64,000 bases of DNA from a virus: the IMG/VR virus record IMGVR_UViG_3300048838_001413, positions 1-64,000 of that record; one strand, 5' to 3'. Both the position numbers and the translations under genes were made by a program. This document shows positions 134 through 45,313 of the stretch, one piece after another (within the stretch, counting starts at the first letter, position 1; every line of letters begins with the position of its first letter). The notes under the pieces were generated by a model, which made no database searches, had not been told where the DNA came from, and saw nothing but the letters and a program-made list of their open reading frames with translations.

Positions 134-2074
134 TTAAAATATCGACAACTGATCGGGATTGTTGAATACTTCGATCAGTTCGTTATCGTCGGCCGTATCT
201 TCCTCGAGTTCAATTTCAGGCACTTCGCCCAGGCAAACTACCGGCGTTTTGATAAGTTCAGGATAATCGGCCAGAACTTCCACGGGAACGGGCAGCCCTT
301 CGTTAAATGCTTTTTTCACCAATAATTTATGTGTGAGTTTTGCTGTTTCCAATGCCTGTGAGGCTTTATACCCACGGGTTTTGCTGGCCTCAGATTCGCG
401 TTTCCAGGCATTTAATGTGCTGTAGTGTTCATCCATCTTTGCCCGATAGGGTTTGATGAACTCACTGAGGGTAATACGCCAAACTTCGGGGCTGTCGGGA
501 GTATGTTTGGCGGCTTGCTGAGGGGGAGCTGCCGATGGCTTAGCTTTTGCCCGGTCAGCAGGTTTCATGGCTTCGGGCAATGGATATCCAAGCAGTTTGG
601 CAATACGCTGATTGAAACGCGCCCACAGGTCACGGTCTTTAAACCGGAAGTGCATGGTACCTTTTTTATACGCCCGTATTTCGAAATATGCCCAGGTAAA
701 TAATTGGCCGTACAGGGGTTCAGAATGTTCCAATATCACTTTTTTACCTTCGTCCTCGAGCTTTTTCTTTCCCTCGAGCGCGCCTCCGTAATGAATATCA
801 TCCCTGAAGTATTTCACCTGCCCATCGAAATGAAGTTTGTAAGGATATCGGATGTGATCTTGCAGAGATCCGAATTGTTTCCAGTTGTCGCCGCTGATGT
901 AGCAAAGCGCTTTTACCATATCTTCAACCAGCCCGAAATAACTACCATAGCTTGCCTGAATATGTGAACCCTTATGCCATTTGTCAGTTCCGCAAAGGTT
1001 TGGAAGGATAAACTTTTCGTTCAGGAGATATTGACTGTTGGTTTTCCAGCCCTCGAGGTTGAAACGGTTTTCGCTGTAGTGTTTAGTCGCGCGCTCAAAC
1101 ACTTCGAGCAATGCTTTATCCATGCGCTGTTCGGTGGTTGCGAAAACAATATCGAGCATACGGTAAATGTTTCGCATTGTGAAGGGGATCTGCTGGTTTT
1201 GTTCGACGAATTTATTAATCGATTCGGATAAACCCTGCGTTGTGTTTCTTGTCAGGTCCATTTTATTGAAAACAAAACGCCATGCACTTTTCTGAAGTTC
1301 TTTTTTGAACTCATTGCGAAGTTTTGGAATCCCGTTTTGCGTGCATTGAAAAGCAAGGTTATGGCCATAAAAGCTGCCCAGCATTTCGTTGAGTTTCAGC
1401 GCCGAGGTCAGCTGTTCATCGTAAATTTTAACGGCACCCACGTACCGGTTAACAATATCGCGGATAAAGTTATACGGCATGATTGCATTGGCTTGCTGTT
1501 CGGCAGGATCTTCCTCGAGGAAAAAGCCATCAAATTCGGTTTCGTAATTACCACCGGGTTTAATCAGTGTAATCATGGCCACTTCAACGTCGGTTTTGCG
1601 TTCGGCATTGCTGAAACATTCGCCCAGCTCAACCATGTTGCCATACTCATTGATAATAGTATTGAGTTCAGACCATGTGCCGTAAAAGCGATCACTTGCT
1701 GATTTTGATTTGCACAGCGAAACAATGCGGCAACCATCGGGGGCAATATTCCAGGCATGAAGAATGTGCCTTGAATCGCTTGAAAACGGGGGGTTCATGT
1801 AAATGGCATCGATATGGCTGACATGCTCAGCCTTAACCGTGAAAAAATCATTTGCCAGTAACCGGCATTTGTTGGCCAGTAATTTTGCAAAATCCTCGTC
1901 CTTTTCACAGGCGATCACTTCGGCAGCGCCATTATGCTGAAGCCAGGAAACAATGTTTCCACTTCCGGCCGAGGGTTCGAGAATTACTTTACCCGCGATG
2001 GTTTCGGAGGCCAGCATGGTTTCAATAACCTCTGGCGGGGTTGGATAAAAATCTTTGTCAAAGATTGATTTCAT
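134..2074 (-). CDS. DUF4942-type DNA adenine methyltransferase-like protein
   Basis: A 646-aa protein. The N-terminal third is an amino-methyltransferase domain: SAM-binding motif EPSAGSG at residues 33-39, catalytic NPPF at 94-97. By family knowledge NPPF/NPPY enzymes methylate exocyclic amino groups, usually N6 of adenine. The rest resembles DUF4942, with a W-A-Y-F-E-I-R then GTMHFRF segment and a PLPE stretch near residue 500. The last ~140 residues are low-complexity and helical. It is the last complete gene of the left arm and has its own block-plus-pseudoknot leader (2089-2157). Inference: it protects phage DNA or modulates methylation. The target sequence is unknown, but the 43-site GATC array at 16.6-17.1 kb makes GATC worth testing. 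The family call is firm; the specificity is not. Confidence 0.8.
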   Translation of the reverse strand: MKSIFDKDFYPTPPEVIETMLASETIAGKVILEPSAGSGNIVSWLQHNGAAEVIACEKDEDFAKLLANKCRLLANDFFTVKAEHVSHIDAIYMNPPFSSDSRHILHAWNIAPDGCRIVSLCKSKSASDRFYGTWSELNTIINEYGNMVELGECFSNAERKTDVEVAMITLIKPGGNYETEFDGFFLEEDPAEQQANAIMPYNFIRDIVNRYVGAVKIYDEQLTSALKLNEMLGSFYGHNLAFQCTQNGIPKLRNEFKKELQKSAWRFVFNKMDLTRNTTQGLSESINKFVEQNQQIPFTMRNIYRMLDIVFATTEQRMDKALLEVFERATKHYSENRFNLEGWKTNSQYLLNEKFILPNLCGTDKWHKGSHIQASYGSYFGLVEDMVKALCYISGDNWKQFGSLQDHIRYPYKLHFDGQVKYFRDDIHYGGALEGKKKLEDEGKKVILEHSEPLYGQLFTWAYFEIRAYKKGTMHFRFKDRDLWARFNQRIAKLLGYPLPEAMKPADRAKAKPSAAPPQQAAKHTPDSPEVWRITLSEFIKPYRAKMDEHYSTLNAWKRESEASKTRGYKASQALETAKLTHKLLVKKAFNEGLPVPVEVLADYPELIKTPVVCLGEVPEIELEEDTADDNELIEVFNNPDQLSIF

Positions 2075-8378: not shown

Positions 8379-9644
8379 TTAAGCCACTTCCAATTCGAGG
8401 ACTTTCTTTATTTTCCGTATATTTTTTTTCACGGTTTTGATTATTTCGTCATGGTATTCCGTTGGCTGATTAAACTTTCCACGGGATTGCCTGATGTCGA
8501 AACTTTCGAGGTTAACTTCAATGGTTTCGAGCCTTTGTTCGCCTTTCTTTGCGCTAAGGATAAGGCTTTCGGGTTTTGCGTAATATTTGTTTTCAAATAC
8601 GCAATGGTGTAACACATCGCCCTCGATCTGAAATTCCTGCACACTTTTAAGCGGGGTAATTTCGATATCCTTGCTTTTGATAAGCAGGTCGAAGAATTTT
8701 TCTTTTTCCTGTTGAAATTGTGCTTCGGCTTCCCTGATCTTTTTCGCATTTTCCTCAGCCGTTTGTTTACGACGAAATTCAGCCCGTTTTTTTGCCCAAT
8801 AATCATGAGCCTGTTGCAGGTTTTCGGGGCATACATACTTCGGGTTGCGTGTATCTTTGCCGAAAACAGTGAGATTATCAACCATATCCTGCCAATTGGT
8901 TACGTCAGAAACGATGTAATTATTCCGGATGCAGATTTTAACGGTTGGCCAGTATTTATCAAGATTAAAACCTTTCACCAAATAATAGCCCAAAAGGTTC
9001 ATCTGCTTTGCTTTCAGCAGGGTTTCGGCTCTGCAATCCGTAATAATAGCCGGAAACAAATCAGAAAAGCTGATCGGGTGGCAGTCTTTTTCAAACCCGT
9101 TGCGCTTGATAATATCGATTACTTTTTGCCTCGGGTAAACGAACGGGAACAGGCGGTAACGCTGATGGAAATTCCGTATTTCCATTTCTGAGTTAAATGA
9201 CCATAAATCGTAATAAAAGTAACTCATGCCGGTACGTTTGGCGATGATGGTTTCTTTGCCATTGCTGTCGTACCACAACTGAACCACTTCGCTCCAAAAG
9301 TATTGGGCTTTTTTACCCACCTTGCAACTTTTTTCCACCCAAAAATATCTAACCACCTGATAGCCGTTTGATACGGTAAGAATTGCAGCATATTCTTTTC
9401 CGCTACAGGTTCGCGCTTTAGTACCGAGCAGTTCAAATGCTGAGCCACATTCGGGGCAGGTGTTTTCTTCGCCCTTATTAGGCCAGCGATGGCCGCACTC
9501 AAAACAAACGTACTCTTTTTTGGTGCGATAGCCCCAATTCGGGAAGCAGTTCTTAAACGCCCACGCCTTTTGCACTGCCGTGATTTTTGGCAGCTTTTTG
9601 CTCAGGCTGAGGATCTTTTCCTGTGTTTTATTTTTCGGCTTCAT
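8379..9644 (-). CDS. PcfJ-like protein with N-terminal zinc ribbon
   Basis: A 421-aa protein. A four-Cys zinc ribbon lies at C47, C50, C63 and C66. The C-terminal ~100 residues have the PcfJ signature: G-D-V-L-H-H-C-V, a Lys/Ser segment S-L-I-L-S, then E-T-I-E-V and Q-S-R-G-K-F-N. PcfJ-like proteins are common on conjugative plasmids and phages; their biochemical role is not settled. There is a coiled-coil Lys/Glu stretch around 300-335. It lies 11 nt after the stop of 9656-10072 without its own leader, so it is the second gene of that operon. Confidence 0.75.
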   Translation of the reverse strand: MKPKNKTQEKILSLSKKLPKITAVQKAWAFKNCFPNWGYRTKKEYVCFECGHRWPNKGEENTCPECGSAFELLGTKARTCSGKEYAAILTVSNGYQVVRYFWVEKSCKVGKKAQYFWSEVVQLWYDSNGKETIIAKRTGMSYFYYDLWSFNSEMEIRNFHQRYRLFPFVYPRQKVIDIIKRNGFEKDCHPISFSDLFPAIITDCRAETLLKAKQMNLLGYYLVKGFNLDKYWPTVKICIRNNYIVSDVTNWQDMVDNLTVFGKDTRNPKYVCPENLQQAHDYWAKKRAEFRRKQTAEENAKKIREAEAQFQQEKEKFFDLLIKSKDIEITPLKSVQEFQIEGDVLHHCVFENKYYAKPESLILSAKKGEQRLETIEVNLESFDIRQSRGKFNQPTEYHDEIIKTVKKNIRKIKKVLELEVA

Positions 9645-9655
9645 TTCAGGCAGTT

Positions 9656-10072
9656 TTAGAAAAGTGATAACTGGCTTTTGCTGTGGGATTGCTCCGGTTC
9701 GTCGGTTTCATCCGTTTCATCGGCCTCCGGTTCGGTTTCGTCGGGTTCATCGGTTTCATCGGTTTCATCGGTTTCCGTTTCCGTTTCGGGTTCAACCTCG
9801 ACAACAGCCTCGGGAGCATGAATTACTTCACAGTTAACCGGTTGGCCAACCTCGAGGTTATCTTCGTCAAAGTAATGCACCGCCATGCCGTACACTTCGG
9901 CATCGGTAAAGGCATTGCAGCCGCTTTTCTTCACCTGATTGAGAATATAGGTTACACAGTCGTCAATGTTTTTCCCCTCTTTGCCCAGGGAAATAGCGAA
10001 TTGATCATCACGAACGGCTCGCATGGCAATGTATTCGGTGATAACGTTTGTAAAACTTTCGGTAGCTTTCAT
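9656..10072 (-). CDS. Hypothetical protein with Thr-Asp-Glu repeat tail
   Basis: A 138-aa protein. Residues 1-85 form a small globular part with a D-D-C-V-T-Y-I-L-N-Q-V-K helix. Residues ~90-130 are an acidic repeat of the type E-T-D-E-T-D. The DNA repeat behind it (TCGGTTTCATCGG units around 9707-9778) is a likely slippage site. An acidic tail can mimic DNA charge or act as a flexible linker; this is speculative. It is the first gene of a two-gene unit with the PcfJ-like gene. Confidence 0.65.
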   Translation of the reverse strand: MKATESFTNVITEYIAMRAVRDDQFAISLGKEGKNIDDCVTYILNQVKKSGCNAFTDAEVYGMAVHYFDEDNLEVGQPVNCEVIHAPEAVVEVEPETETETDETDETDEPDETEPEADETDETDEPEQSHSKSQLSLF

Positions 10073-10677: not shown

Positions 10678-12381
10678 TTATATTGCGTGATAACTGAGGC
10701 CGACGGTCTGCATGGCTTCATCAAGCTGAGCACGACGTTTCTTGGAAAACAAATAACCATCCCTGCGCTCAGTACCAACGAGGATTTTGCATTTACTTCC
10801 GTATTTGAGCAAAAATTCATCGGGCAGTAAATCGGTTAAGCCGACTACGCCAAATGCTTTTTCGGTAACGCTTTCAATTACCGTGAGTAATTCAGGAAGA
10901 TCTTCCTGCTCCGGCTCCGGTTCGGTTTCATCCACGATAGCCTCGGGAATTTCTTCGGCTTCGGGTTCGGGTTTCGGCATTCTTGCGATAATAATTTCCC
11001 CGATTTTTCTTTCGGGCTGAATAGGGTTCTCAACTACTTCGGCCGGTGCTTCGGCCTCGGGTGAAATTTCCCCGTTTTCATTTTCGGGCTGAATAGTGGT
11101 TTCGGCAGGGGTTTCGGCAGGGGTTTCAGCTGCGATGATTTCGTCGAAACGGGCTTTCACCTCGCTTGCCAAAATAGTTACACCGCACTTTGATTTCAGG
11201 ACATCAAGCCCGTGTAAATGCGATAATACTGAATGCCGGCTGCTTTTGTTGCCATCGCCTGAACAATTCATGATGATTTCGTTACTCCAATCCCGCTCGC
11301 TTTTGCGATACATAGCCAACCATTTCTCCAAAAGAGATTCAGCTTGTACGTTGGAACCCTTGCCGATTTTGCTACCAAATACCGGCTCTCCGATCGCTGC
11401 ATCATCGATCATAAGCGGCATTAACAGCGTATTGCCGTTAATAATCATTGCCCTGTTTGAAGCCGACATTTCTATCGTAGTTGATTCGCTTGAAGTGTCG
11501 ATGCCCTTTATCATATACGAGCCATTAAAAGCGATAGGGAAGTACTTTGCACCAAACAGTACGCACGGCAATTCTGTGCGATATTCTGTATTCAAATCCA
11601 AATCCTCGGATTCGATTACCAAGCGATCAGGATGGGCAATCATGAGAACATTTTGCGTTACCTTGTTTGCCGATTTCAGCGCGTTTTTAACAGCGGATAC
11701 AAAATCCGAAGTTTTTACAATCAGGCTTGCCGGATTGTCGATCGGTATTACATTCCAATACTCAGGGTATCTACCCTCGATTAACCTGAAATTAATAATC
11801 TGTTTTTCAGAGATTATTTCCAAGCGAGGGTATTGCGAATTGTCAAAACTCACAACACCCGCTGCTATATTCGCAGCTGCAGCTTTCGGGATAATGACAT
11901 TGCTGACCGTGGTCTGCTTATCTTTAAACCAGCGAAGCATATGGGCATCGGTAGCTGCAATTTGTTTTCCGCCTAAAAATACGCCTGACATTGCCGGCCG
12001 CAGATCATCATTTCCTGTGAAAGGCACAAGGCTTGCTACCTGAGCGGCCTCTTCCTCGCTAATTGTGTCGATGTAATCTTTGCAAGGAATAGCAAGCGGA
12101 AATTCATCAATATTGCCAATCAACGCAAATTTGCTTGCAGAGTTTCCTTTTTTTACGTGAAGAAACCCGTCACGGATTTCGGCGGAATCGTAACTGCCCA
12201 CTTTGTTCAGGGATGTCAGGTCAATTACCCCTTCGCCCTTGATGTCCGTTTGCACGGAAAGACGAATTTCGAGGTTGTCACTGGTCGCCCATCCGTTTTG
12301 AATTAAGGCGGTTTGATCGATGATCGGCAGGGTGCTGCCTTTGGTAAGTTTCATCATTCGTTTGATGTCACTGTTTTTCAT
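10678..12381 (-). CDS. DNA sliding clamp (beta/DnaN-like) with C-terminal extension
   Basis: A 567-aa protein. The first ~325 residues align by eye with bacterial beta clamps: N-D-D-L-R-P-A-M-S-G-V-F-L at 124-136, A-T-D-A-H-M-L-R at 143-150, E-G-R-Y-P-E-Y at 202-208 followed by V-I-P, and a terminal M-P-L-M-I near 321-325, where DnaN ends M-P-M-R-L. A clamp encircles DNA and tethers polymerase. Unlike DnaN (about 370 aa) it continues for ~240 residues: a linker, an acidic Pro/Glu-rich stretch (about 430-505) and a small C-terminal domain (about 510-567). I found no DNA polymerase gene in the window, so the clamp may recruit the host enzyme or one encoded outside it. Block-plus-pseudoknot leader 12399-12468. 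Confidence 0.75.
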   Translation of the reverse strand: MKNSDIKRMMKLTKGSTLPIIDQTALIQNGWATSDNLEIRLSVQTDIKGEGVIDLTSLNKVGSYDSAEIRDGFLHVKKGNSASKFALIGNIDEFPLAIPCKDYIDTISEEEAAQVASLVPFTGNDDLRPAMSGVFLGGKQIAATDAHMLRWFKDKQTTVSNVIIPKAAAANIAAGVVSFDNSQYPRLEIISEKQIINFRLIEGRYPEYWNVIPIDNPASLIVKTSDFVSAVKNALKSANKVTQNVLMIAHPDRLVIESEDLDLNTEYRTELPCVLFGAKYFPIAFNGSYMIKGIDTSSESTTIEMSASNRAMIINGNTLLMPLMIDDAAIGEPVFGSKIGKGSNVQAESLLEKWLAMYRKSERDWSNEIIMNCSGDGNKSSRHSVLSHLHGLDVLKSKCGVTILASEVKARFDEIIAAETPAETPAETTIQPENENGEISPEAEAPAEVVENPIQPERKIGEIIIARMPKPEPEAEEIPEAIVDETEPEPEQEDLPELLTVIESVTEKAFGVVGLTDLLPDEFLLKYGSKCKILVGTERRDGYLFSKKRRAQLDEAMQTVGLSYHAI

Positions 12382-14846: not shown

Positions 14847-14913
14847 GGCAGGGGTAACGGAGGCCGGCTGCCACTCTCCAAATTTTTTCCAATTTTTTTC
14901 AAAGCCCTTTATA
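14847..14913 (-). promoter_or_regulatory. Leader: pseudoknot copy 13 plus block
   Basis: Arms GGCAG 14847-14851 / CTGCC 14868-14872 and GGAG 14859-14862 / CTCC 14876-14879. The block is CCCTATAAAGG, 13 nt, TTGGAAAAAATTT. Confidence 0.7.
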
Positions 14914-15676
14914 GGGATTTAATAATCCATTCCTTACGGTCGTTTTCCTCACGTTCCTCACGGGCTTTTGTTTCGAGTTTTTCAACCGATAGCATTAAAT
15001 TCCATACGAAAATTGAGCCCCGAAGTTCATCCATCATCTGCTGAACAGGTATCAAGCGCTTTTTAAACGATTGAATGAATTTATCTTTTGGCACCTCGGT
15101 TATTTTGCCATTATTCCCGATAAAGAACCGGTCATTTCCCAACACGCTCGAAAGTAAGCTAACAACCTCCAAGGTTACATCTTCGGCCTTAATTTCTCCG
15201 TTATATATCCACCGCAATCCCCTGCTTGTGAAAAATGATGTCGTTCTGCAAGCCAGTAAGCTTTTCAATGCTTTTTCAAGCTTTTCAACGCAAAATATAT
15301 TGGTTCCGGTATCTCTCATGCCGTAATAGAATTCGCCGGTATAGCCAGCAAGTTCTTTCTTATCGTGATATGTAAAATCACGATGAAAATGTTTCAGGTA
15401 AGGGGTTACGATTGGCTGTAATTGCTCATGGTAAGGCTTTACTATCGGGTTTACATAACCCAAACCGCCGAGAGTTACCCCTTTCATGTAATACTTCGAG
15501 CGGGTAAAGTGGTTTCGCTCTGCAATGCTCATTACGATTTCGCAAATGTGTTTTCCATTCACCTTAACCTCGAATTTGCAATAATTCGTGGTTTTAATCG
15601 AAGAGGTAAATTGTTCGGGGTTGCCGTATTTTTTCAGCATTTTCTCCCGCAAATTCGTGTAATTAATAGCGTTCAT
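14909..15676 (-). CDS. Hypothetical protein
   Basis: A 255-aa protein, unrecognised. It is mixed alpha/beta with many Lys and aromatic residues. The last ~40 residues form a charged helix (E-K-L-E-T-K-A-R-E-E-R-E-E-N-D-R-K). It follows the 30-aa membrane-protein gene by only 4 nt, so both probably share the block leader at 15797-15833. Its stop codon precedes the TATAAAGG block of the next gene. Confidence 0.6.
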   Translation of the reverse strand: MNAINYTNLREKMLKKYGNPEQFTSSIKTTNYCKFEVKVNGKHICEIVMSIAERNHFTRSKYYMKGVTLGGLGYVNPIVKPYHEQLQPIVTPYLKHFHRDFTYHDKKELAGYTGEFYYGMRDTGTNIFCVEKLEKALKSLLACRTTSFFTSRGLRWIYNGEIKAEDVTLEVVSLLSSVLGNDRFFIGNNGKITEVPKDKFIQSFKKRLIPVQQMMDELRGSIFVWNLMLSVEKLETKAREEREENDRKEWIIKSL

Positions 15677-15680
15677 GGTT

Positions 15681-15773
15681 TCAGGGTTTTAAGTTGATTA
15701 GCAATATTGTTGCGAAAAATACCATCGCGACAATTACAAACAATTTTTCGGCTGTTGACGGTTCAGTTTCCAT
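15681..15773 (-). CDS. 30-aa membrane peptide
   Basis: A 30-aa reading, M-E-T-E-P-S-T-A-E-K then a hydrophobic span L-F-V-I-V-A-M-V-F-F-A-T-I-L-L-I, ATG 15771-15773, TGA 15681-15683. A clean acidic N-tail plus one transmembrane span, a block leader directly upstream and tight coupling to the next gene support it. Function unknown. Confidence 0.45.
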   Translation of the reverse strand: METEPSTAEKLFVIVAMVFFATILLINLKP

Positions 15774-15796
15774 TTTCGTAATTATTTTCGGCATTT

Positions 15797-15833
15797 GTGA
15801 AAATTTTCCAATTATTTTAAATTCGCTTAATAG
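15797..15833 (-). promoter_or_regulatory. Leader block without pseudoknot (degenerate)
   Basis: CTATTAAGC (one base longer than TATAANGG), then TTGGAAAATTTTCAC. A stub of the pseudoknot region (TCGGCA) remains at 15788-15793, but the rest is missing, so this may be a decayed leader. Confidence 0.45.
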
Positions 15834-16070
15834 TTATTCCCAATAAGCAATTTCAGACAACCGGTTCATGTTTTGCAAACCGGTGAAATGGTTGATAATT
15901 ACCACGCTGAAAATGAAATTAGACGGGATATTAAGTACATTCGAGCAATAGCACTTGGCAACATTTACCGATTCAAACGCAGCCCCTTTTTCGATGTGAT
16001 TATTCACATAATATGCAAGCCACGAAAGGGCTAAAAATTGCTGCGAGGTGAGATTTTTTTTGTAATCCAT
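15834..16070 (-). CDS. Hypothetical small protein
   Basis: A 78-aa protein starting M-D-Y-K-K-N-L-T-S-Q-Q-F-L-A-L-S-W-L, mostly helical with a hydrophobic segment (F-I-F-S-V-V-I-I-N-H-F) near residues 52-62. Not recognised. First gene of the left arm after the repeat-rich region; its pseudoknot copy 14 lies 16 nt upstream and the nearest block about 340 nt further. Confidence 0.55.
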   Translation of the reverse strand: MDYKKNLTSQQFLALSWLAYYVNNHIEKGAAFESVNVAKCYCSNVLNIPSNFIFSVVIINHFTGLQNMNRLSEIAYWE

Positions 16071-16086
16071 TTTCGTAATTATTATC

Positions 16087-16119
16087 GGCAGGGGTAACGG
16101 AGGCCGGCTGCCACTCTCC
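16087..16119 (-). promoter_or_regulatory. Leader pseudoknot, copy 14 (no adjacent block)
   Basis: Arms GGCAG 16087-16091 / CTGCC 16108-16112 and GGAG 16099-16102 / CTCC 16116-16119. A second partial copy (CCGGCTGTCGTTCAGC, 16142-16157) lies immediately upstream. Confidence 0.65.
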
Positions 16120-16556
16120 TTATTATTACGTATATATATAACCGGCTGTCGTTCAGCGGTTTACAAATGCAAAGTTAACACTAAATTTGCATATGTCAAG
16201 CATTTACAGAAATATTTTTTATTCAGCTGATTTTCAGTACTTTGCAAGGCTTAATATATATGTTACCGACATACTAAAAAATGCCACAATATAAGGAACG
16301 GGCGCGCACGAATGGATTATATAGTGCAGATACTTTTTGCTGCATACTGGATTATTTTTTACCCGAAAATTAATCACGGGAAAAATTATCCCGAAAATAG
16401 TTATTCACGTTTGAGTGATCGGCCAAAAATTTTCCAATTTTTTTAAAAGCCCTTTATAGTATTATTCAAACGCACGTGAACACACGTACACGTATAGCCA
16501 ACAGCTTGATAATCAAGCAGTTGCAAACGGCCGTTTACCTGGTAAGGGGGTAAAAA
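16120..16556. other. Gene-free stretch at the right end of the left arm
   Basis: 437 bp without a convincing gene. It holds a partial pseudoknot copy (16142-16157), an inverted repeat ATGCAAA/TTTGCAT (16167-16173, 16186-16192), AT-rich DNA and one TATAAAGG/TTGGAAAA block (16426-16458). A 23-codon minus-strand reading from 16345 exists but has no leader or context. Confidence 0.6.
16426..16458 (-). promoter_or_regulatory. Leader block, rightmost copy
   Basis: CTATAAAGG, 13 nt, TTGGAAAATTTTTGG in minus-strand sense. No start codon follows within the usual distance; the next gene begins at 16070. Its transcript would have a leader of roughly 370 nt. Confidence 0.5.
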
Positions 16557-16567
16557 TTGAGTAATTC

Positions 16568-17080
16568 AGGCAAACGATCAGGCAAACGATCAGGCAAACG
16601 ATCAGGCAAACGATCAGGCCAACGATCAGGCCAACGATCAGGGAAACGATCAGGAAACGATCAGGAAACGATCAGGGAAACGATCAGGAAACGATCAGGC
16701 AAACGATCAGGCAAACGATCAGGCAAACGATCAGGGAAACGATCAGGGAAACGATCAGGCAAACGATCAGGGAAACGATCAGGGAAACGATCAGGCAAAC
16801 GATCAGGCAAACGATCAGGAAACGATCAGGGAAACGATCAGGAAACGATCAGGGAAACGATCAGGCAAACGATCAGGGAAACGATCAGGGAAACGATCAG
16901 GGAAACGATCAGGGAAACGATCAGGCAAACGATCAGGGAAACGATCAGGCAAACGATCAGGCAAACGATCAGGGAAACGATCAGGAAACGATCAGGGAAA
17001 CGATCAGGCAAACGATCAGGCAAACGATCAGGCAAACGATCAGGAAACGATCAGGGAAACGATCAGGGAAACGATCAGGC
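16568..17080. repeat. GATC-containing tandem repeat array
   Basis: About 43 tandem units of 11-12 bp with the core ACGATCAGG followed by CAA, GAA, CCA or AA; counted by eye as 43 GATC sites from 16576 to 17076. The 11-bp units lack one base, so the frame shifts repeatedly. Every unit keeps GATC intact while the flanking bases vary (C/G/absent). It lies between the terminator of 17138-17626 and the first left-arm block. Candidate roles: replication origin iterons, a methylation-sensitive switch or methylase/SeqA-like sink. Confidence 0.9.
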
Positions 17081-17086
17081 ATAAAA

Positions 17087-17116
17087 AAAACCGGCCGCAA
17101 ATTTGCGGCCGGTTTT
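17087..17116 (-). terminator. Rho-independent terminator
   Basis: A perfect palindrome with arms of 15 bases (core CCGGCCGCAAA/TTTGCGGCCGG) followed in minus-strand sense by a run of eight T. It terminates the 17138-17626 transcript and insulates the GATC array. Confidence 0.85.
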
Positions 17117-17137
17117 AATACGGGAAAAAATAATTTT

Positions 17138-17626
17138 TTAGCTTAATGCCGCCTGAACATCGGGCAAATGTTTAACACTAAATATCCAGCCGGCTACCTT
17201 TTGGCCGTTTACGTTTAAAAACCCATTGAAGCGGCCGTTTAACGATTTTAAAACGTCCTTTATTGGCTTTGTGTCACCAATAACGGCAAAGCATTTTTCA
17301 GAATAGCTTATAATCTGAATTTCGGCGGGGGCTGCTGCTGCTTTTGCTTTTGGGGCTGCTGCTGCTTTTGGAAGTTGTTTTTTTACTTTTGGGGCTGCTG
17401 CTGCTTTTGGGGCTGCTGCTGCTTTTGGGGCTGCTGCTGCTTTTGGGGCTGCTGCTGCTTTTGGGGCTGCTGCTGCTTTTGGGGCTGCTGCTGCTGCTGC
17501 TGCTTTTGTTAGTACTGTAGTTGTTGTTGTCTTGTTTTCGTTAATTAATGCCATTATCATTGTAGCGGCATCTTTATCGCTGAGGTTCAGCGACTTAACG
17601 TAAGAAATTGTTTCATGTGTGTTCAT
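17138..17626 (-). CDS. Ala/Pro/Lys-repeat protein with C-terminal GWIFS domain
   Basis: A 162-aa protein in three parts. Residues 1-35 are a helical head. Residues ~40-100 are a repeat of P-K-A-A-A-A, like histone-H1 or Alba-type tails, built on an 18-bp DNA repeat. Residues ~103-162 are a compact domain with D-T-K-P-I-K-D, G-R-F-N, and G-W-I-F-S, a motif I know from many Bacteroidota phage and plasmid proteins. The basic tail suggests DNA binding. It is flanked by the GATC array and the 18-bp repeats at 17.8 kb, so it could bind either. Single-gene unit ended by the terminator at 17087-17116. Confidence 0.7.
   Translation of the reverse strand: MNTHETISYVKSLNLSDKDAATMIMALINENKTTTTTVLTKAAAAAAAPKAAAAPKAAAAPKAAAAPKAAAAPKAAAAPKVKKQLPKAAAAPKAKAAAAPAEIQIISYSEKCFAVIGDTKPIKDVLKSLNGRFNGFLNVNGQKVAGWIFSVKHLPDVQAALS
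17330..17515 (-). repeat. 18-bp coding repeat
   Basis: Tandem GGGGCTGCTGCTGCTTTT units (plus strand) encode the P-K-A-A-A-A repeat of the overlying gene. One unit is interrupted by a K-V-K-K-Q-L insertion. Copy number is likely unstable through slippage. Confidence 0.85.
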
Positions 17627-17778
17627 AACGTATTGATTTTAAGTGTGTTAGGTTCGTGACCGGCAGAACCTCGAAGCCGTTTGAAAGGACAAAGATAATA
17701 TACATTTGCTGCTTTTGTCAAGTGTTATTTTTTATCCGGCATATTATGTAATTGATTTTCAAGCTATTGACAAACGAA

Positions 17779-17797: not shown

Positions 17798-17834
17798 AAG
17801 CCGTTCTATGTGTACCCGCCTGGGCGCGCGATAT

Positions 17835-17906
17835 GTATCGCACATGCGAAACATATCGCACATGCGAAACATATCGCACATGCGAAACATATCGCGCACA
17901 CGAATT
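17835..17906. repeat. 18-bp tandem repeats with internal dyad
   Basis: Three copies of a TATCGCACATGCGAAAC-type 18-bp unit (17835-17852, 17853-17870, 17871-17888) plus a degenerate fourth. Each carries the dyad TCGCA-CA-TGCGA. The 18-bp period puts successive dyads on different helix faces. Confidence 0.85.
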
Positions 17907-18154: not shown

Positions 18155-19870
18155 TTAAAAGCGAGGGTCAACGAAGGTGCTTTGGCGATGCAGGCGCGAG
18201 CCGTATTTTGTCCAGATGCGCTTGTCAACGGCATCGCCGAAGTGCGTAGCTTCTTCGGGGAGGACTGATTTGCGCTGCTCCGAACGCTTGTCTTTTTCGA
18301 ACTTGCCGTTTGTTTCGCGCAAGCCCGTGTTTGTCATGCTTATGAGCGTGTATTTACAGTTTTTGCCATTGAAAATGACCTTTGGGAAACCACTGTTTTC
18401 GCCTTTGAGTATGTTGAGCCAAAGCAGATATTTTTCGTGCTGAGGCGGTTCCATGCCCTTATGCACCTGCTGGCGAACTACCCATTTGTTTCGTATAAAA
18501 CGATCTATGGCTTGTTCGTTGTAGGGTTTTGAGTTTTTGGCATTGGGCTGGCGGTGATCTCCGTACCTGTCGCGGAAGTAAATGACTTCTTTTTTGATGT
18601 GATTTTCGTAGTATTGGCAGAAATCATCAACCAGGTCGTCGATCATAACGCCGGAAGATTCGTCGGGTTTGACGTAAAATTCGTTTATGACACAATCCAC
18701 GGGTTCAACCATGTTGTTTACGAAGTTGAAGTTCCGCTCCTGGCCAACGGAGAAGAGGCTGATCTTCGCGCCCCAATCGGGGCATACCTCGAGGGGTGCA
18801 TTGGGATTGCAATCGAGATCCATTTGGGAATTGTGTTTCCCGAGTTTTTCGAAATCGTAATTTGAGTTTAAGGCCAGTGATTGAATAAACGCGTCGTTGG
18901 TTGCGCTGTAGTACACATGGCGGGTGTTGTCGATGTGGTAGTAACAGTTTTCGACGCGATCGATAACCCAGTTGAGAATTTCGATAAGGAAAGTGAGCAG
19001 GGCTTGTTTATCGTATTCACGGACGATGTAGCTCATTCCAAGGTTTTCGATGTTGTCGAACGCATTGGCCAGGGTAAAGAGAACGCCGCTTTTGGAAGTG
19101 AACGGAGTAATTTTCTGCTTCAGGCGGATGATTTCGTTCCAAAGGGATTTGAAGAAAGCGCGGTCGCTGTTTTTGTAGGCTGAAATAAGGTCGAGCTGAA
19201 GTTTAACAATGCGGTTCCATATCTCGAAAAGCCTGATTCCGGCTTCTTCTTCGTAGTAATCGGCATATTGAAGGAGCCATTTTTGTTCGGGCATGAAGGG
19301 CATTGAACTGACGTACCTGAAGCCGTGGTGCTGTTTGATGGGGTTTTTACACCTGATGCCGAAATGTTCCTCGTTGCCACGGTTTGTGGGCGATGTTTCC
19401 TGATCGTATCGCTCTTTGTTGATGGTGAGGGCTTCGTCAACGATTTCGCGGTCAACGTTGGGTCCTCTGGAGCTTCCGATCCTTTCCTGGGAAAGCATGA
19501 GGAACCCGGTGCCATTGCTGAACGAAATGAAGTTTTCGTATTTAAGCACAGGCTCGAGAGGGGTAATGAAGCTTCGCGGTGGTTTTTGGCCGATCACGTA
19601 ATGTCCTCCGACACCGGGTTCGTACTTTTTATAGCCAATTTGTTCGAGAAACTTAAAGGTAGATGGGAGTGTACGTGTGAGCAGCTGGCCGTATGTTTGT
19701 CCGGTAATTGAACAAATAGACCGTGGCATTTCGCGCGAAACTTTGTTCATTTCCCAACCCACGATGAAGCTTTTCCCGGTACCACGCCCCCATATATCGA
19801 CTTCGGATTTTGGGTTGTTGGCAATGGAGATCAGCTGAGGATTATTGAGTTTAATGAGTTCAGGAATCAT
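18155..19870 (-). CDS. Terminase large subunit
   Basis: A 571-aa packaging motor. Walker A G-R-G-T-G-K-S at residues 28-34 and Walker B with catalytic acid I-V-D-E-A at 143-147 form the ATPase. The C-terminal half has the nuclease-type D-W-G-A-K-I (about 378-383) and later acidic clusters (D-D-L-V-D-D-F). It drives DNA into the prohead and cuts concatemers. It starts one base after the stop of the small-subunit gene, so the two are coupled. Last gene of the operon that begins with the glycosyltransferases. Length fits the family. Confidence 0.93.
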   Translation of the reverse strand: MIPELIKLNNPQLISIANNPKSEVDIWGRGTGKSFIVGWEMNKVSREMPRSICSITGQTYGQLLTRTLPSTFKFLEQIGYKKYEPGVGGHYVIGQKPPRSFITPLEPVLKYENFISFSNGTGFLMLSQERIGSSRGPNVDREIVDEALTINKERYDQETSPTNRGNEEHFGIRCKNPIKQHHGFRYVSSMPFMPEQKWLLQYADYYEEEAGIRLFEIWNRIVKLQLDLISAYKNSDRAFFKSLWNEIIRLKQKITPFTSKSGVLFTLANAFDNIENLGMSYIVREYDKQALLTFLIEILNWVIDRVENCYYHIDNTRHVYYSATNDAFIQSLALNSNYDFEKLGKHNSQMDLDCNPNAPLEVCPDWGAKISLFSVGQERNFNFVNNMVEPVDCVINEFYVKPDESSGVMIDDLVDDFCQYYENHIKKEVIYFRDRYGDHRQPNAKNSKPYNEQAIDRFIRNKWVVRQQVHKGMEPPQHEKYLLWLNILKGENSGFPKVIFNGKNCKYTLISMTNTGLRETNGKFEKDKRSEQRKSVLPEEATHFGDAVDKRIWTKYGSRLHRQSTFVDPRF

Positions 19871-29968: not shown

Positions 29969-32900
29969 TTAAAAAGGTGGTATAATTTCACCGCTTTTGT
30001 TAAACAGGTCATTTTGAGGCTGTTGAGTTGTGCCGGGTAAATTCTGGTTATTTTCGTCGTCAACCTGAGTGGTTATTACATTTATGCCATAATTTTTGAC
30101 GATGTTTTCGTAATGGAAGGCGTGAGCTGTTGTAATCTGCCTTTTTACTTTACCGCTCATATCGAAGTCGGAGCTTTCGCCTTCTTTCATGATAAACGGG
30201 CATGATAATTTTTTGCCGAGGTATTCTTTTGAGTTCATAAGGTAGAACTCGAGGGTTTTGATGGGCAGCACAAAATCGCGGGTAGATGCACCATGCTTAC
30301 GATACTTCTGAAATATGCGTGTGTGGTTGAGGTAGATTACATCGGCCGGAGGGGTAAAGTCGTAGTTTCGTTCACCGATGTTAACTTTGGTTTCGGTTTT
30401 AACGAGGAAGTCCACTTTTTCGAGCAGTTCTCTTTCTTTGACGAGGAAGTTAAATATTTCCCAGAAATTGGCTACATCGTTTGTTTTTTTGGTTTCGGAG
30501 TTCTGCCTGAGAATAAGAGGCACTGTCATTTCGAGCAGGGATTTGAAGGAGAAATTCACGGGCACTTTATCAGCAAGTGTATGGAAAGCGGCGAGAATAA
30601 TCGCCCAATTGCGGAAGATACGATCTTCGATCACCTGGTCGTCGAGCAAGCTGTTGATTTGTGTACAAACGAAGTCGTAGCTTTCGAAAAATGTATTTAG
30701 GAAGTGTTCGCGATGTGAAAGCACCTGATGTGTAAGGTGTGTAACGCCGGCATTGAGAATAACCTTCAGGTCGTTGAAGTTTGTTTTTTCGGTGTCGGAG
30801 TATTCGGTTTGGTTGAATGTTAGAAATATAAGCCTTGAAAACAGCGCAATGTCGGCGGTGGGCATTTCCTGACCGGTAAGCATTAAACCTATGTCAACAT
30901 TGGTGGTTTCTTTTTTCTTGTCTTTTTCCATGTTCATGCGTGTACGTCCGGTGCCATCCCAAATGCCTTTGAGGAATTCTATTTTTTCGAACTCGACATT
31001 GTTTTTGTATTCGTCGATGTGGCAAAGTGCATTGGCGTGCTGAGCCACGTGATCGGCGAGGGCAGCTTTTGACGTATTGTTGATGTTTGGTCCTTTTTGG
31101 AGTTTACCAAAGAAGTGCAGCATAGAAATTGCCATTTCGGTTTTTCCGGCACCTTTTGGACCGAAGAGGTTTAGCACGGGGAAGAATCCGAAACGGTTGG
31201 CAATAATATCGCGGTAGCATGTGGCAAGGAAGAAACAATATGCTATGCGTGCATTCTGGCCGAAAACGGTTTCGAGTTTAAAAACCACTTCAGCCATGGA
31301 TATTTGCCCTGGCATGTGAATAAATTTTCGTTCGGCCACAAAAAGAGAATCTTCGCGTTCGTAAATTTTGGAGAAAGCGGGAATGTAGTAGTTGGTGTCG
31401 TGATGTCTGACGATTCCGAATTCGTTTACTTTAGAGAACTGGCCGTTGTAAATTCCGTTTCCCCACGCCCAAAAACCGTGCTTTTGCCAACCGAGTTGTT
31501 TGATTTCGGTGCAGGTTTCTGTTTTTTCGTAGATGTATCTTTTGAGTTTATTGAGTTCAATTTCGGAAGCCTCCCACAGGAAGTTGCCAAGCGATTCGAC
31601 CCGGAGCCTGAACGACTGCATACTGACGAGATCCTTTTGCATGAATTCAATGATCTGAGAATATCCGAATTCATTTTTTATTTCGAACAAGCGTTTTGAA
31701 TCGATTACGGATTGAACGTGAAACAGTGGTTTCATGGTGAAGTTTGAGCCTCTGACAACCCCGTTTTTGGTATTGAAGAAGTACTGATTATCATCTTCGT
31801 AGAATCCAAATTTTTCGAAATCATCGGCTTTGACGAATTCGGGAATTTTGAACCGGTTATCTTCTTTTTTTTCGTCGGGAGCGTTTAGTTTATTGATTTG
31901 TTTGAGTTCGTCAGTCCAGGCTTTTTTTGGTTTGATGATTGCGCTTACCTGTTCGATATATAGTTCCTGAGTGCTGGATGAAAATTTGCCGATCAGATCG
32001 CTGACATAGGCAATGATCTGTTGTTTCTGATCGGGTTTGCTTGCCAGTGTGGCTTTGTTCTTACAGAACCACAGGATGTAATCGGAGATATTTTGTGCTT
32101 CGTATTCATAGAAATCGGTTTTGGCGAAGAAAGAATCGGGATCCTCTTTTTTCTCTTTCTCCTTAAACATGGGCAGGGTAATGACATTGACGAATAATCC
32201 TGCATTGATGAATTTGACTGCATGATTATCGACTGCGAGCATACCTGGCGCATCGCCATCGCCTATAATGGTAACACGGGTGCAGTACTTTGCGATAAAG
32301 GTTACATGCTGATCGGTTAGCCCGGTGCCGAGGGGTGCGATTGTGTTGATTGGGCCGACTTCCTGCATACGTATCACATCGGGGTTTCCTTCGACCAGAT
32401 AGGCATGTTTGGTTTTGCGGATCTCGTTGATGGCGGTAGTGATTCCGTAAAAAGATTTGCTTTTGCTGTAAATTTCTGTTTCGCGTGAGTTGATGAATTT
32501 TGGTGTTTTGGGGTCTTTTTCGTGTGGTGTAACTCTTCCGGAGAAAGCGATAATGCTTCCGGATTCGTTGGTGATCGGGAACATGATACGGTTTCGGAAA
32601 GTGTCGAAGGTTTTATCATTTTTTTGCGAAACAAGCCCGACGGCCATGAGATCGGCGATATTATGTCCTTTGCTGATTGCGTAGTCGGAGAGCGCCTGCC
32701 AACTATCGGGCGCATATCCGATAGACCATTTAACGATGATGTCCTCGGAGAATCGTTCCTTTACATAAATGAGGGCATTTTCGTTTTCGGGAAGCCTGAG
32801 CTGATCGACAAAGAACTGCTGAGCCATTCTCATAATGGAGAAAAGCTTTTCGCGTTTGGCGTTTGCTTCGGGATCGTAAGGAATATCTGATTTCAGATCG

Positions 32901-33166
32901 ATGGTAAGTGCATGGTCTTTTGCAATGGTTTTGCAGGCTTCGATAAAGTCGAAGTGTTTGTGCAGCATCACGAATTTAATTGCATCACCCCCGACGCCGC
33001 ACCCGAAACATTTAAAGGTGTTTGTACGCGGAAACACGAACATTGAAGGTGTTTTCTCGTCGTGAATCGGGCAGCAACCTTTGTAATTAACGCCGGCTTT
33101 ATTAAGGGTTATATACCGACTGATGATGTCGTAAATTGGTGTGTCGTGTATTTCGTCGGTTTTCAT
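29969..33166 (-). CDS. DNA primase-helicase
   Basis: A 1065-aa replication protein. CHC2 zinc finger at residues ~31-57 (C-P-I-H ... F-K-C-F-G-C), DnaG-type catalytic core with TOPRIM motifs V-E-G-N-P-D (258-263) and G-D-G-D-A-P-G (302-308), then a C-terminal ATPase with Walker A G-P-K-G-A-G-K-T (669-676) and Walker B C-H-I-D-E-Y (715-720). It would prime and unwind at the replication fork. It lies between the cytosine methylase gene and the TGTAGTT repeats, a place fitting an origin nearby. The ATPase seems DUF927/D5-like rather than DnaB-like; this subtype call is tentative. Confidence 0.88.
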   Translation of the reverse strand: MKTDEIHDTPIYDIISRYITLNKAGVNYKGCCPIHDEKTPSMFVFPRTNTFKCFGCGVGGDAIKFVMLHKHFDFIEACKTIAKDHALTIDLKSDIPYDPEANAKREKLFSIMRMAQQFFVDQLRLPENENALIYVKERFSEDIIVKWSIGYAPDSWQALSDYAISKGHNIADLMAVGLVSQKNDKTFDTFRNRIMFPITNESGSIIAFSGRVTPHEKDPKTPKFINSRETEIYSKSKSFYGITTAINEIRKTKHAYLVEGNPDVIRMQEVGPINTIAPLGTGLTDQHVTFIAKYCTRVTIIGDGDAPGMLAVDNHAVKFINAGLFVNVITLPMFKEKEKKEDPDSFFAKTDFYEYEAQNISDYILWFCKNKATLASKPDQKQQIIAYVSDLIGKFSSSTQELYIEQVSAIIKPKKAWTDELKQINKLNAPDEKKEDNRFKIPEFVKADDFEKFGFYEDDNQYFFNTKNGVVRGSNFTMKPLFHVQSVIDSKRLFEIKNEFGYSQIIEFMQKDLVSMQSFRLRVESLGNFLWEASEIELNKLKRYIYEKTETCTEIKQLGWQKHGFWAWGNGIYNGQFSKVNEFGIVRHHDTNYYIPAFSKIYEREDSLFVAERKFIHMPGQISMAEVVFKLETVFGQNARIAYCFFLATCYRDIIANRFGFFPVLNLFGPKGAGKTEMAISMLHFFGKLQKGPNINNTSKAALADHVAQHANALCHIDEYKNNVEFEKIEFLKGIWDGTGRTRMNMEKDKKKETTNVDIGLMLTGQEMPTADIALFSRLIFLTFNQTEYSDTEKTNFNDLKVILNAGVTHLTHQVLSHREHFLNTFFESYDFVCTQINSLLDDQVIEDRIFRNWAIILAAFHTLADKVPVNFSFKSLLEMTVPLILRQNSETKKTNDVANFWEIFNFLVKERELLEKVDFLVKTETKVNIGERNYDFTPPADVIYLNHTRIFQKYRKHGASTRDFVLPIKTLEFYLMNSKEYLGKKLSCPFIMKEGESSDFDMSGKVKRQITTAHAFHYENIVKNYGINVITTQVDDENNQNLPGTTQQPQNDLFNKSGEIIPPF

Positions 33167-33236: not shown

Positions 33237-34862
33237 TCATATAGCTTGTTGTTTGCTGCTGATGAACTGATTCAATGCTTTTACAACCGGTTCAATAATA
33301 ATTCGTGCCCATTCGGGCGGGACTGCATTTCCAATGAGTTTGGTTTGCTGTTTGCGGGATAATCCAAGTTGTTTATTGGTAAAATAACCTTTTGGGAAGG
33401 TGCTGATCTGCGCCAGTTCTTCGGGATCGAGGAAACGCATTTTGATGTCGAAATCAATTTCGCCGTTCAGTATAGCGGTAATGAGTGCTTTGTTGGTTGG
33501 GCTTGTGGTGATTGTACCGAGGGGATATTCAAGGTTTTGGCTTTGTGATTGCTGGTTTCCTGAACTTGAAAAGTGAGCCGTAATGAATTGAATCTTTTCC
33601 TTAGTGGTAATTGAATTTAGAGGCTCGTCGATGGATTGGTTATTGCCCGTTGAAAAATGATGGCTGATAAGCTGAAACTTTTCTTCAGTACTTGTTGCTC
33701 CGAGCGGTTCTTCCAGGCTTTTTGCATTTGCACCGGGATTGCCGTTGCTGTTGTATTGTGCAGCAATAAACTGCTTTTCGATTGTAACCAGGTGTTTTGA
33801 ATTTTCGGTGGTAATTGTATTTGCTGGTCCATCAAGATCGTGAGCTGTTGTTTCGCGGCCATAATAATCGCTGAGGAATTGAAGTTTTTCAACGGTAATA
33901 AGTTGTTTGGTTTCGCGTGTCAGGATTGGATTGAGGGGTTCGTCGGGGGTGTTGAAATTGTCGGTATAGCAATGATCGGTAACGAATTGTTTTTTATCAA
34001 CAGTAACCAGAACATGCCGGTCTTTTGTGGTAATGGTATTTAAAGGAGCGTGGATTGTCTGAGCGTTTAATCCGCTTCCGTAATACTGAAAAATGAAGCA
34101 GAGTTCGGGTGCATATTTTTTTATACCTCCGGCAATTCGTTTGAGTGAATTAGGCACAAGCGGAACGCGCTTTCCTTTTCTGACATTAGGATTAAACTGC
34201 CTTCCGAAAATGCTTTCGCCCTCTTTTTCGAGATTGATAAATGATTTGCAGGCCACCCATTTTTTGAGTCCACCTTTACCGGTTTTGCTATGTGTTGGCT
34301 TTGGCCAATCGATTGGTAATCCTATTTCGACCTGAATAAAGAAAGCGAAGTATCTTACTCTTCGGGTAGGTATTCCGAAATCTGCGGCATTGCAAATCAT
34401 TTCGTGGTATTCATACCCGAGGGCTTTGATTGCATTTTTCCATCGTTCGAATTCCTGCCCTTTTTTTGATTTATCGATTGTGCCATCGGGTTCAACGGGA
34501 GCCCAATCACGAAATTCCGGGACATTTTCAATCCCCACGGCCAAAGGCATACCGTGTTTGATATATCGCACAAGTTCCCAGCCGAGGGTATAAGAACCTA
34601 TCTTTTTATTTTTCCCGCCATTGGCCCGTGAATGTTGTGTACATTCGATTGAAGCCCACATAAAATCGACCTTTTCGACTTCGTGTTCGTCCTGTTTGTA
34701 AATGTCGGCCCAAAAGTGTTTAATTCCTTTGTGGTTGAATAAATTGGTTCGGATAGCAAGTTTGTCGTGATTGAGCACATACTTAACCTTTAGACCAGGT
34801 ATCTTGCTCATTGCTTCAGTAACTCCGCCACCACCGGCTAAAAAATCTCCCGCTGTTATCAT
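33237..34862 (-). CDS. DNA cytosine-C5 methyltransferase with tandem repeats
   Basis: A 541-aa C5 methylase. Motif I F-L-A-G-G-G-G (7-13), catalytic cysteine in S-I-E-C-T-Q-H-S (Cys74, replacing the usual P-C-Q), motif VI I-E-N-V (111-114), motif X I-G-N-A-V-P-P near the C-terminus. Between the methylase halves, in the target-recognition region, are about six repeats of ~30-40 residues with the pattern (D/E)-x-P-L-x-T-I-T-T-K. Likely protects phage DNA from restriction. The repeats may give several or adjustable target sites. Confidence 0.85.
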   Translation of the reverse strand: MITAGDFLAGGGGVTEAMSKIPGLKVKYVLNHDKLAIRTNLFNHKGIKHFWADIYKQDEHEVEKVDFMWASIECTQHSRANGGKNKKIGSYTLGWELVRYIKHGMPLAVGIENVPEFRDWAPVEPDGTIDKSKKGQEFERWKNAIKALGYEYHEMICNAADFGIPTRRVRYFAFFIQVEIGLPIDWPKPTHSKTGKGGLKKWVACKSFINLEKEGESIFGRQFNPNVRKGKRVPLVPNSLKRIAGGIKKYAPELCFIFQYYGSGLNAQTIHAPLNTITTKDRHVLVTVDKKQFVTDHCYTDNFNTPDEPLNPILTRETKQLITVEKLQFLSDYYGRETTAHDLDGPANTITTENSKHLVTIEKQFIAAQYNSNGNPGANAKSLEEPLGATSTEEKFQLISHHFSTGNNQSIDEPLNSITTKEKIQFITAHFSSSGNQQSQSQNLEYPLGTITTSPTNKALITAILNGEIDFDIKMRFLDPEELAQISTFPKGYFTNKQLGLSRKQQTKLIGNAVPPEWARIIIEPVVKALNQFISSKQQAI

Positions 34863-44728: not shown

Positions 44729-45313
44729 TTAGAAAGTTCCACCATCAACGGTTGTAACCCATGTTGGATTTTGGCCTGCGCCACCTGTTTGAAGAAATGC
44801 GCCAGCAGTACCGGCAGCAAGTCGGGCATAAGCACTTGCCCCGCGATACATGATGTCGCCCTGCGCTTCAGAAGCAAATGAAAGCGCTACGGTAACATAG
44901 GCATTTGCAGCACCAGCAACCATTTTCAGTCCGGCTGCATCAACACGCAAAACTCCATTCGATCCGTTTGATCCTAAATAATCGGCTGTAGCTCCGGCAG
45001 CTGCGGCTACTTTTTCATCAGAGCTGCCCGGAGGGATGTTCAGCGCAGATTTAAAATCGCTGAATGCCACTTTCTTTTGCCTTGGTGCATTGGCGGCCAC
45101 GCTGGTGTCGCTGATTAACAAAAGATCATCATCAGCAATTACTCCGATGGCATCCAGAGGCGCAAGGTCGGTTTTTACGGGAACTTTGGTTTCAGCTCCG
45201 GTACCAAAGTACAATTCCTGGGTGTCGGTACAAAAAAGAGGTTCGCCACTTTCCATTCCGGAAGTGGGAAGCGCTGCTTTTGTTCCTTGTCTGACTTTAA
45301 TTTTTACTGACAT
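44729..45313 (-). CDS. Tail fibre protein with Mtd_N-like start
   Basis: A 194-aa protein. It starts with K-I-K-V-R-Q-G-T-K-A-A-L-P then E-P-L-F-C-T-D-T-Q-E-L-Y-F-G-T-G, the same attachment module as its neighbour. The remainder is Ala/Gly-rich and short for a fibre. Probably a minor fibre or fibre base. Confidence 0.65.
   Translation of the reverse strand: MSVKIKVRQGTKAALPTSGMESGEPLFCTDTQELYFGTGAETKVPVKTDLAPLDAIGVIADDDLLLISDTSVAANAPRQKKVAFSDFKSALNIPPGSSDEKVAAAAGATADYLGSNGSNGVLRVDAAGLKMVAGAANAYVTVALSFASEAQGDIMYRGASAYARLAAGTAGAFLQTGGAGQNPTWVTTVDGGTF

What the first reader, a model, noticed from the sequence alone, without database searches (positions are those of the whole stretch)
16568..17080. 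Tandem array of 43 GATC sites
Seen: 11-12 bp units whose GATC core never varies while neighbouring bases do, ending at a strong terminator. All three plus frames are nearly open only because the unit has no stop. No iteron of this density is known to me in phages of this group. Inference: replication origin, methylation-dependent switch, or a titration site for a Dam-type methylase, SeqA-like or GATC-specific nuclease. A DUF4942 methylase is encoded in the same arm.
Basis: partly seen in the sequence, partly recalled or inferred. Interest (0 to 1): 0.78.

Follow-up and report, generated by a model that had tools for sequence, protein, structure and literature searches.

The report
Phage DNA array of 43 repeats
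A bacterial virus carries 43 back-to-back copies of one 10-letter DNA word in its longest non-coding stretch, probably docking sites for one of its own proteins, perhaps where its DNA copying starts, but this is untested.

Summary
The array is real: window 16566-17081, 43 GATC sites, 35 spacings of 12 bp and 7 of 11 bp. What never varies is not GATC alone but the asymmetric 10-mer AACGATCAGG (43 of 43); only the 1-2 bases between copies vary. Slippage/duplication simulations that reproduce that linker pattern always also produced core variants (0 of 3,042 lacked them). This favours selection on a 10-11 bp site, unless the linker is hypermutable. GATC is not enriched elsewhere, no Dam-family gene was found, and a relative with the DUF4942 gene lacks the array, so the methylation reading is weak. 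The 'strong terminator' ends the neighbouring minus-strand gene. None of 82 terL relatives has such an array; it lies in a variable insert next to terL. Best reading (about 0.38): iteron-like binding array at a replication or initiation-control site, beside a very AT-rich stretch and at the sharpest GC-skew change of the record. That skew change also coincides with a module boundary and is not independent proof. Rivals: neutral minisatellite, operator or titration array, partition site, pac site.

The parts
16566..17081 (+). tandem array: 43 copies of AACGATCAGG separated by A, CA, GA or CC
17087..17116 (-). rho-independent terminator of the minus-strand gene 17138-17626; perfect 15-bp inverted repeat with T-tract on the minus strand
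17138..17626 (-). 162-aa protein with an Ala/Lys/Pro repeat tail and a C-terminal domain also seen in Prevotella Lak phages and on a Flavobacterium plasmid (in an LPD29-domain protein)
   Evidence: low-confidence model
16171..16470 (.). AT-rich, easily melted stretch (69% A+T; within the least stable 1% of 300-bp stretches of the window) left of the array
16170..16199 (-). candidate Bacteroidota-type promoter (TTGACA ... TAACTTTG) of the leftward operon
   Evidence: this pattern is not enriched over chance in the window (12 found, 11.4 expected)
17690..17721 (-). candidate promoter of 17138-17626
17826..17897 (.). 18-bp near-palindromic tandem repeats upstream of the 17138-17626 promoter (operator-like)
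14909..16070 (-). first two genes of the leftward operon (78 aa, 255 aa), no known family
18155..19870 (-). terminase large subunit
   Evidence: 31.6% to an annotated terminase; 42 phage records matched
29969..33166 (-). DnaG-type primase fused to a P-loop ATPase/helicase-like part; candidate reader of the array
134..2074 (-). DUF4942 protein with an N-terminal methyltransferase domain (EPSAGSGN and NPPF, read by eye)

Best explanation
The array is a cis-acting set of about 43 directly repeated, asymmetric 10-11 bp binding sites (AACGATCAGG) for one phage-encoded DNA-binding protein. Copies are held at 11-12 bp, roughly one helical turn, so bound protein would line up along the DNA as a filament or solenoid. 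My best guess for its role is an iteron-type replication or initiation-control site: protein bound on the array melts or helps open the AT-rich stretch at 16171-16470, next to the leftward operon, and the phage's primase-ATPase protein (29969-33166) enters there. Shown: the array, its invariance, its place in the longest non-coding gap, the AT-rich neighbour, and the skew change. Inferred: that a protein binds, which protein, and that replication starts there.
For: 43 of 43 identical 10-mers with variation confined to the linker. Under neutral duplication/slippage with equal site rates, 0 of 3,042 simulated arrays with an observed-like linker pattern had an invariant core (minimum 15 of 43 units with core changes). 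A gene-conversion-like model gives at most 0.002 for equal rates. Array in the largest gap between predicted genes (1,067 bp), behind a terminator. AT-rich stretch beside it in the least stable 1% of the window. Best single changepoint of fourfold-site GC skew over 4,117 sites is 16044-16047 (log-likelihood ratio 26.0; 300-permutation maximum 8.4; 25.6 at the array itself), skew 0.06 on 8-16 kb and 0.50 from there to 30 kb. The plus-strand integrase gene keeps the same strand bias as the minus-strand genes. A DnaG-type primase fused to a P-loop ATPase is encoded, with a 26-residue 42% match to phage P4 alpha around the P-loop (E 0.006).
Against: The skew step coincides with the border between the conserved core and a variable insert: the best two-point segmentation is 16050-63312, nearly the core. 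Inserts in array-less relatives also have weaker (less negative) skew than their core in 16 of 22. No clustered DnaA boxes. No known initiator family in the left operon. No relative carries the array. 43 copies is far more than the iteron counts I recall. The linker may simply be hypermutable: a linker/core rate ratio of 30 gives joint probability 0.28.
Confidence: 0.38

Rival explanations
1. Operator or titration array: the same repeated sites bind a phage regulator that represses or times the leftward operon, or soaks the regulator up (decoy), without being an origin.
For: The array lies about 370 bp upstream of a candidate promoter of the leftward operon and behind the neighbour's terminator. 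The core invariance fits any binding protein. A second operator-like repeat block (17826-17897) lies in the next gap.
Against: Operators are usually few and overlap the promoter. Isolated near-copies elsewhere are not in excess (5 found; about 3.0 expected under order-2 to order-4 Markov models, 1.55 under order 1).
Confidence: 0.2
2. Neutral minisatellite: replication slippage expanded a 12-bp word in an otherwise idle gap; the invariant core only reflects youth and a mutable linker.
For: Private to this phage (0 of 82 relatives); sharp edges; GATC-bearing 12-bp arrays arise independently in many viral contigs (at least 120 stretches) and the same 10-mer appears in short arrays of two unrelated bacteria.
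Against: Neutral models with equal site rates do not reproduce it (0 of 3,042; at most 0.002). Linker variants are interspersed, not in blocks (identical neighbours 16 vs 13.2 shuffled; longest repeated block 4 units), though short-read assembly would favour arrays without long repeats.
Confidence: 0.22
3. Centromere-like partition site (parC type) for a plasmid-like prophage state.
For: ParR proteins bind 10-20 bp direct repeats: 11 bp in R1, 10 bp in pB171 (PMC9426499, passages read). The spacing fits.
Against: No ParM/ParA/ParB-type family among the proteins scanned with Pfam; an integrase is present, which suggests chromosomal lysogeny.
Confidence: 0.07
4. Packaging (pac) site recognised by the small terminase, like the GATC-containing repeats of phage P1 pac.
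For: The array lies 1.1 kb beyond the 3' end of terL. P1 pac cleavage is regulated by adenine methylation (title of Sternberg and Coulby 1990, seen only in a reference list; the TGATCA/G repeat details are recalled).
Against: The gene just upstream of terL (likely TerS) is conserved (about 57-59% in the best matches; 78 loci matched) yet 0 of 82 relatives have the array. No Dam-family gene.
Confidence: 0.05
5. GATC-specific methylation switch or sink (Dam/SeqA/nuclease titration), as first proposed.
For: 43 GATC sites in 516 bp; a DUF4942 protein with a methyltransferase domain is present.
Against: Six bases flanking GATC are equally invariant; GATC elsewhere is at 0.81 of expectation; DUF4942-bearing loci lack the array (7 of 7 loci, L237 being the same contig as L008).
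Confidence: 0.05
6. Coding repeat, (Gly-Lys-Arg-Ser)n, read on the plus strand from the TTG at 16557.
For: No stop in any of the three plus frames. In one frame the C/G variation is synonymous (GGC/GGG, read by eye).
Against: Seven single-base linker deletions shift the frame between three unlike peptides; the other synonymous positions never vary; neighbouring genes are on the other strand.
Confidence: 0.03

Closest known systems
Iteron-type phage/satellite replication origins with a primase-helicase (phage P4 ori and crr; PICI origins)
   Same: Short repeats in a non-coding region beside an AT-rich stretch, and a primase fused to an ATPase in the same genome. P4 record: 8-bp type 1 repeats, six within the annotated origin and ten in crr, crr lying next to the alpha terminator. 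[quoted passage not shown]
   Different: 43 head-to-tail copies on one side only, 10-bp core with 11-12 bp period; the primase-ATPase gene is about 13 kb away; binding not shown.
ParMRC partition sites (plasmid R1 parC, 11-bp repeats)
   Same: Direct repeats of about one helical turn that seed a protein solenoid (PMC9426499, passages).
   Different: Ten repeats in R1 (from a reference title); no ParM or ParR recognised here.
Phage P1 pac site
   Same: Repeated GATC-containing words near terminase genes (details recalled).
   Different: Here one invariant asymmetric 10-mer, not a hexamer; not conserved with the terminase.
GATC-bearing 12-bp minisatellites of other viral contigs
   Same: 12-bp GATC-bearing arrays exist in many viral contigs.
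   Different: Nearly all others keep spacings that are multiples of 3 and look coding; the longest other chain is 21 sites (L083) against 43 here; in the GATCAGGTCNGG class the GATC itself is often mutated.

Membership tests
iteron-type replication origin | cluster of identical direct repeats in non-coding DNA | tested here: met
iteron-type replication origin | adjacent AT-rich, easily unwound stretch | tested here: met
   300-bp stretch at 16171, 69% A+T, least stable 1%
iteron-type replication origin | strand-composition change at the site | tested here: inconclusive
   changepoint 16044-16047, but the same as the core/insert border
iteron-type replication origin | repeats bound by a cognate initiator and needed for replication | not testable with these tools
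   needs binding and replication assays; only a candidate primase-ATPase is seen
ParMRC partition locus | parM and parR genes beside the repeats | tested here: not met
   no such family among the proteins scanned with Pfam; short or divergent ones could be missed
P1-type pac site | site travels with its terminase | tested here: not met
   0 of 82 relatives with a related terL have the array; 42 of the 82 hold at least 3 kb beyond terL
P1-type pac site | terminase cuts within the site | not testable with these tools
   needs virion-end mapping
Dam/SeqA-type GATC site cluster | only GATC is constrained | tested here: not met
   AACGATCAGG invariant in 43 of 43
Dam/SeqA-type GATC site cluster | 6mA at GATC | not testable with these tools
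   no methylation data
protein-coding repeat | reading frame kept across units | tested here: not met
   7 of 42 linkers are one base shorter

The most novel reading that the evidence does not exclude
A temperate Bacteroidota-type phage uses a single-sided filament of about 43 initiator sites, each an invariant 10-mer with a free spacer base, as its replication origin: an origin architecture with many times more iterons than the ones I know of, acquired together with an accessory module in a terL-adjacent hotspot.
Probability: 0.2. Interest if true: 0.65.

Novelty: new variant of a known kind. Interest (0 to 1): 0.42.

Why it matters
If the array is a binding platform, it is an extreme, clean natural case: 43 identical sites with one free spacer base. 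It would allow direct tests of how repeat number and helical phase set the assembly of an initiator or regulator filament. It also shows the terL-adjacent region as a hotspot where such cis elements can enter a phage lineage.

Tried and rejected
GATC-specific selection: rejected as the main reading, since the whole 10-mer is invariant, GATC is not enriched elsewhere and no Dam family was found.

pac site: rejected as likely, because relatives with a conserved likely TerS lack the array.

Structured RNA: array RNA folds no better than shuffles (plus -97.2 against a mean of -97.3; minus -111.5 against -106.9, sd 6.4; 30 mononucleotide shuffles each). Rfam gave 8 matches with E up to 1, all well below gathering scores.

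Coding (GKRS)n: rejected because of frame-breaking linkers.

Homologous arrays elsewhere: the exact two-unit pattern in viral contigs gave 3 stretches, each a single isolated pair, L002 and L003 being the same sequence. The three-unit pattern in genome contigs gave 2 (Thalassolituus marinus, Bradymonadales MAG): the first has spacings of 12, 24 and 36 and looks coding (not formally tested), the second is a short run. blastn against phages: no match (BLAST masks simple repeats).

GC skew as proof of an origin: downgraded.

Relatives by left-arm proteins: none for 14909-15676 or 10678-12381 in viral contigs. Structure models of 17138-17626 and 14909-15676 were too poor to use (mean pLDDT 53 and 36), so no fold search was run. 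Isolated core copies elsewhere: no clear excess. Paper searches showed no described phage array of this kind in their listings; the library is partial.

Full report
WHERE IT IS. The window is bases 1-64000 of a 68,835-base virus record. Its terminase large subunit matches 42 phage records, mainly of Flavobacterium, Porphyromonas, Cellulophaga and Polaribacter, so the phage is of a Bacteroidota-infecting kind (inference). It encodes an integrase. Nearly all predicted genes run on the minus strand.

THE ARRAY. TRF finds one outstanding array, 16566-17081, period 12, 43.6 copies, score 850; 43 GATC sites lie in it. Splitting it at the recurrent word gives 43 perfect copies of AACGATCAGG. The 42 linkers are GA (17), CA (16), A (7) and CC (2), so 35 spacings are 12 bp and 7 are 11 bp. 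No plus frame has a stop over the 516 bp; all three minus frames do.

IS THE INVARIANCE MEANINGFUL? Linker variants are interspersed: 16 identical neighbours against 13.2 in shuffles (p 0.21), and the longest repeated block is 4 units. I simulated arrays growing or turning over by block duplication with equal mutation rates at one linker and ten core sites: 24,300 runs, of which 3,042 met a loose match to the observed linker pattern. None had an invariant core, and the minimum was 15 of 43 units with core changes. Under a gene-conversion-like model the joint probability of at least 3 linker alleles and ten invariant core sites is at most 0.002 for equal rates, 0.09 for a tenfold and 0.28 for a thirtyfold faster linker. 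So either the core is under selection or the linker is strongly hypermutable. A caveat: short-read assembly favours arrays without long internal repeats, and the copy number is unverified.

SURROUNDINGS. The array lies in the largest gap between predicted genes (16071-17137, 1,067 bp). To its right is a perfect hairpin whose T-tract is on the minus strand, so it terminates the minus-strand gene 17138-17626 before the array. That gene encodes 162 aa with an Ala/Lys/Pro repeat tail and a C-terminal domain found also in 15 Lak phage records and 2 plasmids. To the array's left is an AT-rich stretch (16171-16470, 69% A+T, least stable 1% of 300-bp stretches) and a candidate Bacteroidota promoter at 16170-16199 (the pattern is recalled and is not enriched over chance: 12 found, 11.4 expected). 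The leftward operon begins with two genes of no known family.

STRAND COMPOSITION. At fourfold-degenerate sites, plus-strand GC skew is 0.07 in 8-16.5 kb and 0.51 in 18-30 kb. The best single changepoint over 4,117 sites is 16044-16047, log-likelihood ratio 26.0 against a permutation maximum of 8.4; at the array itself it is 25.6. The plus-strand integrase gene shows the same bias as minus-strand genes, so the bias is not set by gene direction. This looked like an origin signal. However, in relatives a 91-aa gene and a 449-aa gene (portal by position only; no family hit) follow terL: each was matched in 34 loci, starting 0.1-8.4 kb and 0.4-8.6 kb after the end of terL. Here the homologues lie at 60184-61805, so on a circular map (inferred) the left arm plus 62-68.8 kb is an insert of about 25 kb between terL and that pair. 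The best two-point segmentation of skew (16050-63312) is nearly the core. In 22 array-less relatives with inserts over 2 kb, 16 have less negative sense-strand skew in the insert than in the core (pooled -0.047 against -0.125). The skew step is therefore at least partly a module effect, and I count it as weak support.

RELATIVES. Two scans of viral contigs gave 82 loci with a related terL in total (analysed together; 1.09 Mb). No tandem array of four or more copies in them scores above 135. Only 42 of 82 hold at least 3 kb beyond terL, so absence is tested best in those. The gene upstream of terL (likely TerS) matches 78 loci, about 57-59% in the best ones. Only L008 shares left-arm genes (DUF4942, PcfJ, PcfK), and its whole 27,694-base contig has no TRF array. 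Eight records searched for GATC triplets at 11-12 bp gave 2 with a single chance-like triplet and no array. Seven DUF4942-related loci (one being the L008 contig again) have no GATC array; L241 has other minisatellites.

ARRAYS OF LIKE FORM ELSEWHERE. In the 80 loci analysed, the longest chain is 21 sites (L083), and only one listed chain (L092) has spacings that are not multiples of three. A class with GATCAGGTCNGG units recurs, in which GATC is often mutated. The exact unit recurs only as isolated pairs in viral contigs and as short arrays in two unrelated bacteria.

WHO COULD READ IT? The phage encodes a 1,065-aa protein with DnaG-type primase domains and a P-loop ATPase part (GPKGAGKT, by eye). 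Its only notable local likeness to phage P4 alpha is 26 residues at 42% around the P-loop, E 0.006. [quoted passage not shown] That makes this protein a candidate reader, nothing more. No Dam family was found in the record (the control rang in E. coli). The DUF4942 protein has a methyltransferase-like N-terminus of unknown specificity, and a C5-cytosine methylase lies at 33237-34862. GATC outside the array is at 0.81 of expectation, rank 27 of 256 tetramers. High GATC density is a known mark of E. coli oriC (11 in 256 bp, PMC11447400, passages), but there it is GATC, not a 10-mer, that is repeated.

VERDICT. A real, private, extreme array of asymmetric 10-bp sites, best read as a binding platform, most plausibly for replication initiation or its control (0.38). 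A neutral minisatellite (0.22) and an operator or titration array (0.20) are live rivals. The GATC-methylation reading is disfavoured. No binding, methylation, replication or copy-number data exist here.

Noticed in passing
window 1-64000 and L024: CTAG is absent from the whole window (0 against about 30 expected) and from the remaining 4.8 kb (0 against 3); 17 of the 82 terL-relative loci have none despite an expectation of at least 5.
   Followed up: partly
window 17826-17897: 18-bp near-palindromic tandem repeats (TCGCACATGCGA core) upstream of the 17138-17626 gene, operator-like.
   Followed up: no
window 17138-17626: Histone-H1-like Ala/Lys/Pro repeat protein whose C-terminal domain recurs in 15 Lak megaphage records and, on a Flavobacterium plasmid, in an LPD29-domain protein.
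   Followed up: partly
terL-relative loci: The interval between terL and the next conserved gene pair is a hotspot of variable inserts (0.1 to 8.6 kb in relatives, about 25 kb here on a circular map).
   Followed up: partly
window 44729-45313: Major tropism determinant N-terminal domain (Mtd_N), a possible sign of a diversity-generating system.
   Followed up: no
L035, L045, L046, L059, L108, L116, L131: A recurrent class of 12-bp GATCAGGTCNGG / GATCAGGTTNGG arrays in IMG/VR contigs, with GATC often mutated to GCTC or GGTC.
   Followed up: partly
window 8379-10072: PcfJ- and PcfK-like genes (conjugative-element families) in a phage arm, near a DNA polymerase III beta-like protein at 10678-12381.
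   Followed up: no
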